Of a DNA stretch of 54,460 nucleotides, positions 4,908-53,798 are shown piece by piece. Made by a program: the position numbers and the translations under genes. Location of the stretch: positions 1 through 54,460 of the forward strand of contig JACSRX010000094.1 of assembly GCA_014879535.1 (NCBI GenBank), in the 5' to 3' direction. The stretch's first letter is position 1; the number at the start of each line of letters is the position of its first letter. The DNA comes from Chthoniobacterales bacterium. Its GTDB lineage: Bacteria; Verrucomicrobiota; Verrucomicrobiia; Chthoniobacterales; JACTMZ01. A model generated the notes under the pieces. That model ran no database searches. It was not told the DNA's origin and saw only the letters and a list, made by a program, of their open reading frames with translations.

Positions 4908-6197
4908 TCACAACCGGCCGCGATGCCCCGACGTCATCTCGCGCATGATTTGCGCCGGCGGCCGCCCGTTTCGAAGCAACGCTGTCATGCGCTGCATCGC
5001 CGGTGCCGAATGGTTGAAGAAGCGTTTGTAGGCGCGGCAGAGAAAGTTCAACCCGGGATCGCCATCCGGCGCGCGGAGGAACCGGTGCTTGGGACACTCC
5101 CCGCGGCAGAGGTGGAGCACCTCGCAATCCCGGCAGCAGCGGGGAAGCGTCGCCGATTTGTCGCGACCGAACTGGCGCTGGAATCGGGAGGACACCAAGT
5201 CGCCCAGCCCCCTGTCCAGGATGTTCCCCAGCCTGTAATGCGGGTAAACATAGTGGTCGCACGAATACAGGTCGCCATTGTGCTCCATGGCCATCGCATT
5301 CCCGCATGTTTCGCTGAAAACACACAGGCCGGGCCCCTCGCCGGCCCAGTTGCCCAACGTGACGTCGAATATCTGCACGAAGGTCCTGCCCACGTCCCGC
5401 CGGATCCATTCGTCGAAGATCGCACAGAGGAACTCGCCGTATTGCTTCGGTTCAACGCTCCAATCCGTGACCGCCGGGGGCCGTCCCTCCTCTTCGTCCA
5501 CCCGGGGTGGCAGCGCAAGGTTGAGGCCGAGTCCGGCCGCCACGGCATCACCCGATCGCTCGACAAGCGGGATGAACTGCATGAACCCGGACCCCATGTC
5601 GCGGAGGAAGCGGTAAACTTCGAGGGGATGGCGGGCGTTGACCCGGTTGACCACGGTCAACGTGTTGAACTCGACGCGATGCCTCTTCAACACACGCAGT
5701 CCGCGCAGAACTTCGTCGTAGGTATCACGCCCCCTTTTGTCCACACGGTGGGCATTGTGAAGTCTGGCGGGCCCGTCGATGCTCAGACCCACCAGGAATT
5801 CATGGTCCCGAAGAAACGCCCCCCACCCGTCGTCCAGCAGGGTGCCGTTGGTCTGCAGCGCGTTGTGAACCCTCCTCCCGCCGGCATATTTGCGCTGCAA
5901 CTCCACCACTTTCCGGAAAAATCCAACTCCCAGCAACGTGGGCTCCCCGCCCTGCCATGCAAAGGAAACCTCGGGGACATCCTGGGTCTCGATGTATTGG
6001 CGGATGTAGGACTCGAGGACTTCGTCCGACATCTTGAAACGCTCGTTCCCGGGATACAGGTGCTCCTTCTCGAGATAGAAGCAGTATCGGCAGTCGAGAT
6101 TGCAGACGGGACCGATCGGCTTCGTCATCACGTGAAAGGCCCGCACCGCCCCCGAAGGACCTCCGGAGGCAACCGGATCTTTCATGGAAGTGGTCAT
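4908..6197 (-). CDS. Anaerobic sulfatase-maturating radical SAM enzyme (anSME)
   Basis: The enzyme oxidises an active-site Ser or Cys of type I sulfatases to C-alpha-formylglycine in the cytoplasm, using S-adenosylmethionine and iron-sulfur clusters. The 429-residue protein has the radical SAM triad CNLDCRYC (Cys32, Cys36, Cys39) followed by FYLEKE, then AWQGGEPTL. The C-terminal SPASM region is Cys-rich (GPGLCVFSETCG, GDLYSCDHYVYP, LPRCCRDCEVLHLCRGECPKHRF) for two auxiliary clusters. An internal ATG at 6185 is an alternative start. No sulfatase gene lies in the window, so its clients are elsewhere. A related radical SAM peptide-modifying role cannot be excluded, but the full motif set fits anSME. 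Confidence 0.9.
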   Translation of the reverse strand: MTTSMKDPVASGGPSGAVRAFHVMTKPIGPVCNLDCRYCFYLEKEHLYPGNERFKMSDEVLESYIRQYIETQDVPEVSFAWQGGEPTLLGVGFFRKVVELQRKYAGGRRVHNALQTNGTLLDDGWGAFLRDHEFLVGLSIDGPARLHNAHRVDKRGRDTYDEVLRGLRVLKRHRVEFNTLTVVNRVNARHPLEVYRFLRDMGSGFMQFIPLVERSGDAVAAGLGLNLALPPRVDEEEGRPPAVTDWSVEPKQYGEFLCAIFDEWIRRDVGRTFVQIFDVTLGNWAGEGPGLCVFSETCGNAMAMEHNGDLYSCDHYVYPHYRLGNILDRGLGDLVSSRFQRQFGRDKSATLPRCCRDCEVLHLCRGECPKHRFLRAPDGDPGLNFLCRAYKRFFNHSAPAMQRMTALLRNGRPPAQIMREMTSGHRGRL

Positions 6198-6246
6198 CCC
6201 GGTGCCCGGAAGCCGCGGCCCAAGCAGCCATGCGCCGGCGGCGCCC

Positions 6247-7107
6247 TCAGTCCCCCCGAGCGATGGGGGCGCGCACGCGGTTGCCCCACTCGGTCCACGA
6301 ACCGTCGTAGTTCCGGACCCTTTCGTAACCCAGCAGATACGTCAGGACGAACCATGTGTGGCTGGAACGCTCCCCGATGCGGCAATAGGCCACAATCCCT
6401 TCCTCAGGCCGCAGACCGCATCCCTGCGCGTAAATCCTTTCCAGTTCGCTGCGGGATTTGAATGTCCCGTCATCATTGACCGCGGTTTTCCACGGCACAC
6501 TTCTGGCACCCGGAATGTGGCCGCCGCGCAACACCCCCTCTTGGGGATACTCGGGCATGTGCGTGATCTCGCCGCGGAATTCCCCGGGTGAACGGACGTC
6601 GATCAGGGGCATCCGCCCCTCACTCTGGCTCAGCGCGTCCTCGTAAAAGGCGCGGATTTCCGCGTCGCGGCGCACAGCGGGAACGGGATAGTCCCTCCCG
6701 GCGTGGACCGGTTTGGCACGTGTGATCGTCCGCCCCTCGGCGATCCACTTGTCCCGGCCGCCATTCATGATTTTCACCTTCTCGTGGCCGAAAAGACGGA
6801 AGACCCAAAGCGCATAGCACGCCCACCAGTTCGATTTGTCCCCGTAGAAGACGCATGTTGTGTCCGGACCGATCCCGTTCTTCGCACATACCCCGGCAAA
6901 TCCTTCCGGCGTGATGTAGTCTCGCATGGTCTGGTCCTGCAGATCCCCGCGCCAATCGATGTGCACCGCACCGGGCACATGGCCGGTGTCGTAGAGGAGC
7001 ACATCCTCGTTGCTCTCGATGATCCGCACGGAAGGATCGTCCAGATGTTCCGCCACCCAGTCCGTGGAAACCAAGGCCTCGGGATGGGCGTATTCGTCGG
7101 GATCCAT
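6247..7107 (-). CDS. Two-domain thiosulfate/3-mercaptopyruvate sulfurtransferase (rhodanese)
   Basis: This tandem rhodanese moves sulfane sulfur to cyanide or other thiophiles. The 286-residue protein has an inactive N-terminal rhodanese domain (about residues 10-130, with [11 protein letters not shown] and MNGGRDKW). The active C-terminal domain (about 145-285) has [24 protein letters not shown], and the catalytic loop [11 protein letters not shown] with Cys242. The loop resembles rhodanese (CRxGxR) more than mercaptopyruvate sulfurtransferase (CGSGVT), so thiosulfate is the likelier donor. I start at the ATG at 7107 because the 33 upstream in-frame residues are low-complexity. It lies 49 bp downstream of the maturase on the same strand. 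Confidence 0.92.
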
Positions 7108-7228: not shown

Positions 7229-7316
7229 GGAGGGGTGCCAGAGCGGTTGAATGGACCGGTCTTGAAAACCGGAGAGGCGCAAGTCTCCGTGGGTTCGAAT
7301 CCCACCCCCTCCGCCA
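7229..7316 (+). tRNA. tRNA-Ser (anticodon UGA)
   Basis: The 88-nt cloverleaf has acceptor stem GGAGGGG/CCCCTCC, a long variable arm typical of Ser, and T-arm GTGGG-TTCGAAT-CCCAC. The anticodon stem CCGGT/ACCGG encloses loop CTTGAAA, giving anticodon TGA. The discriminator is G and CCA is encoded (7314-7316). Its last 19 nt recur 99 bp downstream (see the repeat entry). Confidence 0.97.
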
Positions 7317-7415
7317 TTTCGCCGGAGGCGAAGTCGAAACCTTCCGGTGGGATGAGAACCGTTCGAGCGCGAAGCACAGGTTGCCGTCAGGCAACCAATC
7401 CCACCCCCTCCGCCA
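7298..7415 (+). repeat. tRNA-Ser tail cassette: 19-nt direct repeat of the tRNA 3' end with structured spacer
   Basis: The last 19 nt of tRNA-Ser (7298-7316, AATCCCACCCCCTCCGCCA, from T-loop position 58 through CCA) is repeated exactly at 7397-7415. The 80-bp spacer (7317-7396) contains a hairpin TTCGCC/GGCGAA (7318-7332), a block GCGAAGTCGAA (7328-7338) and CGCGAAGC (7368-7375). It ends in a perfect 7-bp-stem hairpin GGTTGCC/GGCAACC (7379-7396) that directly abuts the second copy. The tRNA-Gln gene at 53635 has the same architecture. An att-like origin or a functional tail element is possible; neither is shown by sequence alone. Confidence 0.85.
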
Positions 7416-53634: not shown

Positions 53635-53708
53635 TGCCTCGTGGTGTAACGGTAGCACAAGTGATTCTGGATCACTTTGTCATGGTTCGAATCCATGCGA
53701 GGCAGCCA
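53635..53708 (+). tRNA. tRNA-Gln (anticodon CUG)
   Basis: The 74-nt cloverleaf has acceptor TGCCTCG/CGAGGCA, anticodon stem AGTGA/TCACT around loop TTCTGGA (anticodon CTG), and T-loop TTCGAAT. The discriminator is G and CCA is encoded (53706-53708). Its last 19 nt are repeated 90 bp downstream. Confidence 0.97.
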
Positions 53709-53798
53709 ATCTCGGATTCGCGAACTCGAATCATCCTCGGCACGCGAAGCCACCCCCGGAAAGGTCGCCACGGGCGACCAATCCATGCGAGGCAGCCA
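53690..53798 (+). repeat. tRNA-Gln tail cassette: 19-nt direct repeat of the tRNA 3' end with structured spacer
   Basis: AATCCATGCGAGGCAGCCA (53690-53708, from T-loop position 58 through CCA) recurs at 53780-53798. The 71-bp spacer has the inverted repeat GATTCG/CGAATC (53715-53732), GCGAACTCGAA (53720-53730) and CGCGAAGC (53743-53750). It ends in the 7-bp hairpin GGTCGCC/GGCGACC (53763-53779) that abuts the repeat. Each element has a counterpart in the tRNA-Ser cassette at 7298. Confidence 0.85.

What the first reader, a model, noticed from the sequence alone, without database searches (positions are those of the whole stretch)
53690..53798. Second, related tail cassette on tRNA-Gln
An independent instance with a different tRNA sequence shows that the duplicated 19 nt follow the host tRNA, while the spacer blocks and hairpin are shared. 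That pattern is expected of an element that inserts at tRNA 3' ends and rebuilds them, or of a system that copies the tRNA end. Two out of two tRNA genes in the window have it, so it may be very common in this genome.
Basis: partly seen in the sequence, partly recalled or inferred. Interest (0 to 1): 0.8.

Follow-up and report, generated by a model that had tools for sequence, protein, structure and literature searches.

The report
tRNA-linked repeats at tRNA ends
The last 19 letters of this tRNA gene are copied a short way downstream because the gene carries a 'tRNA-linked repeat', a short repeated DNA tail known from E. coli since 1978 and shown here on 7 of 42 tRNA genes of this bacterium and in distant phyla, with one strand of the tail written as a mirror-complement of the tRNA it sits on.

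Summary
Bases 53690-53708 (tRNA-Gln positions 58-76) are repeated exactly at 53780-53798, and tRNA-Ser(TGA) has the same layout; these are the only exact 19-mer direct repeats within 200 nt in the window. The elements belong to a known family, the tRNA-linked repeats (TLRs) of E. coli (tyrT/proK repeats; Rfam RtT RF00391). One copy in this genome passes Rfam's cut-off, and the anatomy matches the E. coli loci read here. TLRs sit on 7 of 42 tRNA genes of this genome, all with a TTCGAATCC T-loop (7/11 versus 0/31). A covariance model finds them in 33/97 genomes of the order and 40/288 of the phylum; exact motif hits lie beside tRNAs in Bacteroidota and Neomarinimicrobiota. New here: a spacer arm is the Watson-Crick complement of the host tRNA's 3' strand. 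It follows the tRNA's own copy rather than the distal one (about 10:1) and never copies the T-stem 5' strand at G·U pairs (20:0). Copy number at the Gln locus varies from 1 to 7 among species. No nearby integrase, no reverse transcriptase and no Y1 transposase was found. I favour a DNA-level tandem repeat with a foldback-templated arm over an integrating element. Function remains unknown.

The parts
53635..53708 (+). tRNA-Gln(CTG) gene
   Evidence: ARAGORN; Rfam RF00005 61.8 bits
53690..53708 (+). X1: tRNA positions 58-76 (AATCCATGCGAGGCAGCCA), first copy of the repeat
53714..53725 (+). arm GGATTCGCGAAC, inverted complement of the tRNA T-loop (GTTCGAATCC) with a 2-nt insertion
   Evidence: covariation of this arm in relatives
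53763..53779 (+). terminal hairpin GGTCGCC-ACG-GGCGACC abutting X2
   Evidence: such hairpins >=6 bp in 59% of elements versus 3% of shuffles
53780..53798 (+). X2: exact second copy of tRNA positions 58-76
7229..7316 (+). tRNA-Ser(TGA) gene with X1 at 7298-7316
7346..7353 (+). arm GGTGGGAT, perfect complement of tRNA-Ser positions 59-66
7354..7367 (+). core motif GAGAACCGTTCGAG (GAGAAC-loop-GTTCGA hairpin), conserved to E. coli
7379..7396 (+). terminal hairpin GGTTGCC-GTCA-GGCAACC
7397..7415 (+). X2 of the tRNA-Ser(TGA) element

Best explanation
It is a tRNA-linked repeat (TLR/RtT family). Shown: each unit is X (tRNA positions 58-76 and often some flank), a loop, an arm that is the inverted Watson-Crick complement of X, a GAGAAC-loop-GTTCGA core, a variable body and a terminal hairpin, followed by the next X; units occur singly or in tandem. 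Inferred: the repeat is kept and multiplied by DNA-level processes. Slippage or unequal recombination between X copies adds and removes units, which is why X always equals the host tRNA end. The arm is made or corrected by foldback (quasi-palindrome) copying from the tRNA's 3' strand, which selection on the tRNA holds fixed. Occasional exchange between TLRs at the shared TTCGAATCC box spreads the core to other tRNAs. The unit is probably co-transcribed with the tRNA as a structured 3' trailer, as RttR is in E. coli; whether that RNA has a use is open.
For: Family: E. coli tyrT, tyrV and proK read here have the same X-arm-GAGAA-GGTTCGA-hairpin-X layout. RF00391 hits this genome's Ser(GCT) element above its gathering score (45.8 against 45) and otherwise rang only in E. 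coli among 14 controls. PMC8144298 gives the 18-19 bp 3' identity as the TLR hallmark. Tandem origin: 7, 3, 3, 2, 2, 1, 1 and 1 copies of X downstream of the Gln(CTG) tRNA in 8 genomes of the genus, some units identical. DNA-level arm: complementarity peaks at positions 59-66 against shuffles; at T-stem G·U pairs the arm is always the complement of the 3' base, 20 to 0; no excess of G·U at the first break of the stem, 9 versus 10.7 expected; the arm follows X1 rather than X2, about 10:1 after removing misaligned cases. Target box: 7/11 versus 0/31 tRNAs, p=1.2e-5. Exchange: spacer bodies resemble each other more within a genus across tRNAs than across genera on the same tRNA; in genus g1 bodies of one genome are homogenised (permutation 12/1000).
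Against: The GAGAAC-GTTCGA core and the terminal hairpin recur across phyla, which suggests selection on RNA or DNA structure beyond passive repetition. Homogenisation was not seen in genus g9 (441/1000). The sharp start at A58 (63 of 66) is not explained by random duplication. No empty site with matching flanks was found, so gain was not observed directly. A selected DNA hairpin would also give Watson-Crick-only arms. Several E. coli TLRs (argQ, argZ) lack the core.
Confidence: 0.55

Rival explanations
1. RNA-level element: the trailer arm pairs with the tRNA's 3' half or with X2, controlling pre-tRNA folding or 3' processing, or yielding an sRNA.
For: Strong covariation of the arm with host tRNA (29 double-changed cells versus 9.4 shuffled and 3-8 slid). 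Predicted folds: the arm captures the tRNA 3' half in 44/62, and T-stem probability falls from 0.73 (tRNA alone) to 0.24, against 0.67 with shuffled trailers. E. coli RttR ends at the X2 CCA and 5S-linked TLR RNAs bind Hfq and CsrA (PMC8144298).
Against: Arms are Watson-Crick without the G·U tolerance expected of RNA helices; the arm does not track X2 as the Rfam consensus structure implies; presence is patchy and copy number fluctuates between close species; the function once claimed for rtT was retracted.
Confidence: 0.25
2. Footprint of an integrase-borne element at the tRNA T-loop: X1 and X2 are attL and attR.
For: Direct repeats of tRNA 3' ends are the classic sign of tyrosine-recombinase integration (established knowledge); a viral contig (L069) carries a copied Gln T-arm upstream of a TLR, read as a prophage junction.
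Against: None of the 13 integrase hits of this genome lies near a TLR tRNA; spacers are mostly 50-180 nt without genes, share a core across tRNAs and phyla, and carry an arm complementary to the host tRNA; identity starts at A58, not T54.
Confidence: 0.08
3. Reverse-transcription copying of the tRNA 3' end (X2 as a cDNA of mature tRNA, start at A58 as an RT stop).
For: X2 begins at position 58 in 63/66; in four loci X2 has CCA where X1 lacks it (L093, L132, L143, L168).
Against: X2 identity often continues past the tRNA end into genomic flank; no RVT_1 domain in this genome, whereas the same search rang in 3 control genomes.
Confidence: 0.04

Closest known systems
tRNA-linked repeats (TLRs) of E. 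coli K-12, incl. tyrT/tyrV 178-bp repeats and proK
   Same: 18-19 bp 3' end identical to the upstream tRNA, same A58 start, same arm GGAT-GAGAA, GTTCGA core, terminal hairpin, tandem units
   Different: In this genome on Ser, Asn, Ala and Gln tRNAs rather than Tyr/Pro/Arg; spacers shorter (about 67-125 nt here; E. coli unit 178); no 5S-linked copy was looked for
Rfam RF00391 RtT RNA
   Same: one element here scores 45.8 bits, above the 45-bit cut-off
   Different: the other copies fall below the cut-off (next 18.6 bits); Rfam pairs the arm with X2, whereas the covariation here follows X1
tRNA att sites of tyrosine integrases
   Same: direct repeat of a tRNA 3' end
   Different: no integrase nearby, tiny gene-free spacer, host-matched inverted arm, repeat starts at A58

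Membership tests
[quoted passage not shown]
   exact 19/19 at both window loci; starts at position 58 in 63/66 elements
tRNA-linked repeats (TLR) | located directly downstream of a tRNA or rRNA gene | tested here: met
   26/27 phylum-level loci at a tRNA 3' end (the model includes the T-arm, but core-motif hits without it were tRNA-adjacent in 9/11 and 8/10)
tRNA-linked repeats (TLR) | one to several tandem units per locus | tested here: met
   1 to 7 copies of X at the Gln locus across the genus; L065, L067
Rfam RF00391 RtT | score at or above the gathering threshold | tested here: met
   C23:67-191 (tRNA-Ser GCT of the same genome) 45.8 bits; the two window copies themselves gave no hit
Rfam RF00391 RtT | processed RNA released from the tRNA transcript | not testable with these tools
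   no transcriptome available
integrase-borne element at a tRNA att site | linked tyrosine recombinase | tested here: not met
   13 PF00589 hits, none near the 7 TLR tRNAs

The most novel reading that the evidence does not exclude
TLRs are a self-spreading DNA repeat, widespread in bacteria, that custom-builds its inverted arm and its end repeat from whichever TTCGAATCC tRNA it lands on, with no enzyme of its own, by replication template switching; the resulting trailer can capture the tRNA 3' half and so acts as a folding switch on its host tRNA.
Probability: 0.2. Interest if true: 0.65.

Novelty: new member of a known kind. Interest (0 to 1): 0.42.

Why it matters
TLRs have been known for nearly fifty years in E. 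coli with no accepted function or origin. Showing that they recur across phyla with a strict architecture, a target box and an arm templated by the tRNA turns an old curiosity into a family with testable rules. It also warns annotators: tRNA-end direct repeats are not by themselves evidence of an integrated element.

Tried and rejected
Mobile element or att site: no linked integrase. RT copying: no RVT_1, and X2 runs past the tRNA end. Y1 or REP-type transposition: no PF01797 hit. Phage-borne cassette: of 3 exact hits in viral contigs, two lie in unrelated coding-like sequence and one reads as a prophage junction beside a host TLR. Arm as a direct copy of the T-stem 5' strand: refuted 20:0 at G·U pairs. 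Kink-turn and integron attC readings of the GA/GA mismatch were considered and not tested further. Contig ends at tRNAs as a sign of long arrays: true for Ser(GCT) (C29/C23 share that tRNA), not for Gly(CCC). Neomarinimicrobiota 5.6-kb duplication as an integrated element: no integrase-like ORF recognised between the copies. Searching the E. coli genome with the model was not possible.

Full report
Observation. The tRNA-Gln(CTG) gene at 53635-53708 is followed by a second, exact copy of its last 19 nt (positions 58-76) at 53780-53798, separated by 71 nt that end in a hairpin. tRNA-Ser(TGA) has the same layout at 7298-7316 and 7397-7415. No other exact 19-mer is repeated within 200 nt anywhere in the window, and the two spacers align better than all of 500 shuffles.

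How common in the genome. The genome has 58 tRNA-model hits, including a dense atypical array on contig C90. Of 42 other tRNA genes, seven carry the element: Ser(TGA, CGA, GGA, GCT), Asn(GTT), Ala(CGC) and Gln(CTG). The Ser(GGA) copy is cut by a contig end, and the Ser(GCT) copy is read from contig C23, whose start overlaps the tRNA at the end of C29. Five of the seven were found from self-repeats downstream of every tRNA, not from a model; the two at contig ends were read by eye and by the model. All seven have the T-loop TTCGAATCC, which only four tRNAs without an element have (7/11 versus 0/31, Fisher p=1.2e-5).

What it is. The same anatomy stands behind E. coli tyrT, tyrV and proK: X, then an arm (GGGGAAGGAT or GAGGAT), GAGAA, GGTTCGA, a GTTGC hairpin, and X again. 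This family is known as tRNA-linked repeats: 22 in E. coli K-12, 18-19 bp identical to the upstream tRNA or rRNA end, no known function (PMC8144298). Rfam RtT (RF00391) hits the Ser(GCT) element of this genome at 45.8 bits (cut-off 45), and among 14 control genomes rings only in E. coli.

Distribution. The motif GGATGAGAACCTTGGTTCGAG, which contains no tRNA-specific part, was found exactly in Verrucomicrobiota, Bacteroidota and Neomarinimicrobiota genomes, nearly always beside a tRNA and often in tandem. A covariance model from 13 elements found matches in 33 of 97 genomes of the order and 40 of 288 of the phylum; 26 of 27 phylum-level loci begin in a tRNA T-arm. The model contains the T-arm, so that last figure is partly by construction. 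Hosts are mostly Ser tRNAs (55 of 101), then Pro, Ala, Tyr, Thr and others; no Leu.

Architecture. X2 starts at A58 in 63 of 66 elements. The arm covaries with the host tRNA. Its complementarity spans positions 59 to about 66 and then falls to background. Where the tRNA T-stem has a G·U pair, the arm is the complement of the 3' base and never a copy of the 5' base (20 to 0, with 2 that are neither). The paired run does not end in G·U more often than expected (9 versus 10.7). Where X1 and X2 differ, the arm fits X1: 18 to 1 as counted, about 10 to 1 after removing three loci in which X2 was misaligned. A hairpin of at least 6 bp ends within 4 nt of X2 in 59% of elements against 3% of shuffles.

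Dynamics. Downstream of the Gln(CTG) tRNA, the eight genomes of the genus in which the locus was read have 7, 3, 3, 2, 2, 1, 1 and 1 copies of X, with identical neighbouring units in the longest array. Spacer bodies are more alike between different tRNAs within a genus than between the same tRNA in different genera (0.55 versus 0.465). Within genus g1 bodies of one genome are homogenised (12 of 1000 permutations reach the observed value); within g9 they are not (441 of 1000). One Ser(TGA) array (L141) carries a unit end that matches the Asn tRNA 3' end, which I read as exchange between loci.

Mechanism. Shown: family, architecture, target box, copy-number variation, Watson-Crick arm. Inferred: tandem duplication and loss through X, foldback correction of the arm from the tRNA's constrained 3' strand, and rare exchange at the shared T-loop box. 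This explains why X and the arm follow the host without any copying machinery, and fits the absence of a nearby integrase and of RVT_1 and Y1 domains in this genome, which is about 96% complete. It does not explain the conserved core and hairpin, nor the exact start at A58; these may reflect an RNA role. Predicted folds show that the arm would capture the tRNA 3' half in most precursors, but thermodynamic folding of unmodified RNA is weak evidence.

Verdict. The finding is real, and it is a new set of members of a known kind.

Noticed in passing
G000 contig C90:5401-7633 (L036): Dense array of about 20 atypical, partly abutting tRNA genes with a weak integrase hit about 3 kb away, resembling phage or plasmid tRNA arrays.
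   Followed up: no
L061 tRNA-Arg(TCT) 412-486 and L065 tRNA-Arg(TCT) 6189-6263: In Crocinitomicaceae/Flavobacteriales, tRNA-Arg has an exact X repeat 164-170 nt downstream but without the TLR core motif: perhaps a second type.
   Followed up: no
L066:2598 and L060:166 (SCKJ01000003.1, 194598 and 200166): Two copies of a TLR core segment of about 43 nt lie 5.6 kb apart in a Neomarinimicrobiota genome; the distal one is followed by the tRNA-Arg X.
   Followed up: partly
L069:5780-5960 (IMG/VR contig): A copied tRNA-Gln T-arm directly upstream of a TLR, read as a prophage attachment junction beside a host TLR.
   Followed up: partly
G000 C89:18367, C7:25381, C84:75520: Integrase genes lie about 1-2 kb from three tRNAs that have no TLR (Met, Arg ACG, Thr CGT).
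   Followed up: no
L093, L132, L143, L168: X1 of the tRNA lacks an encoded CCA while the downstream X2 has it.
   Followed up: no
G000 contigs C58/C53 (Gly CCC) and C34, C84 starts: Several contigs end inside tRNA genes without TLRs, probably assembly breaks at other repeats.
   Followed up: partly
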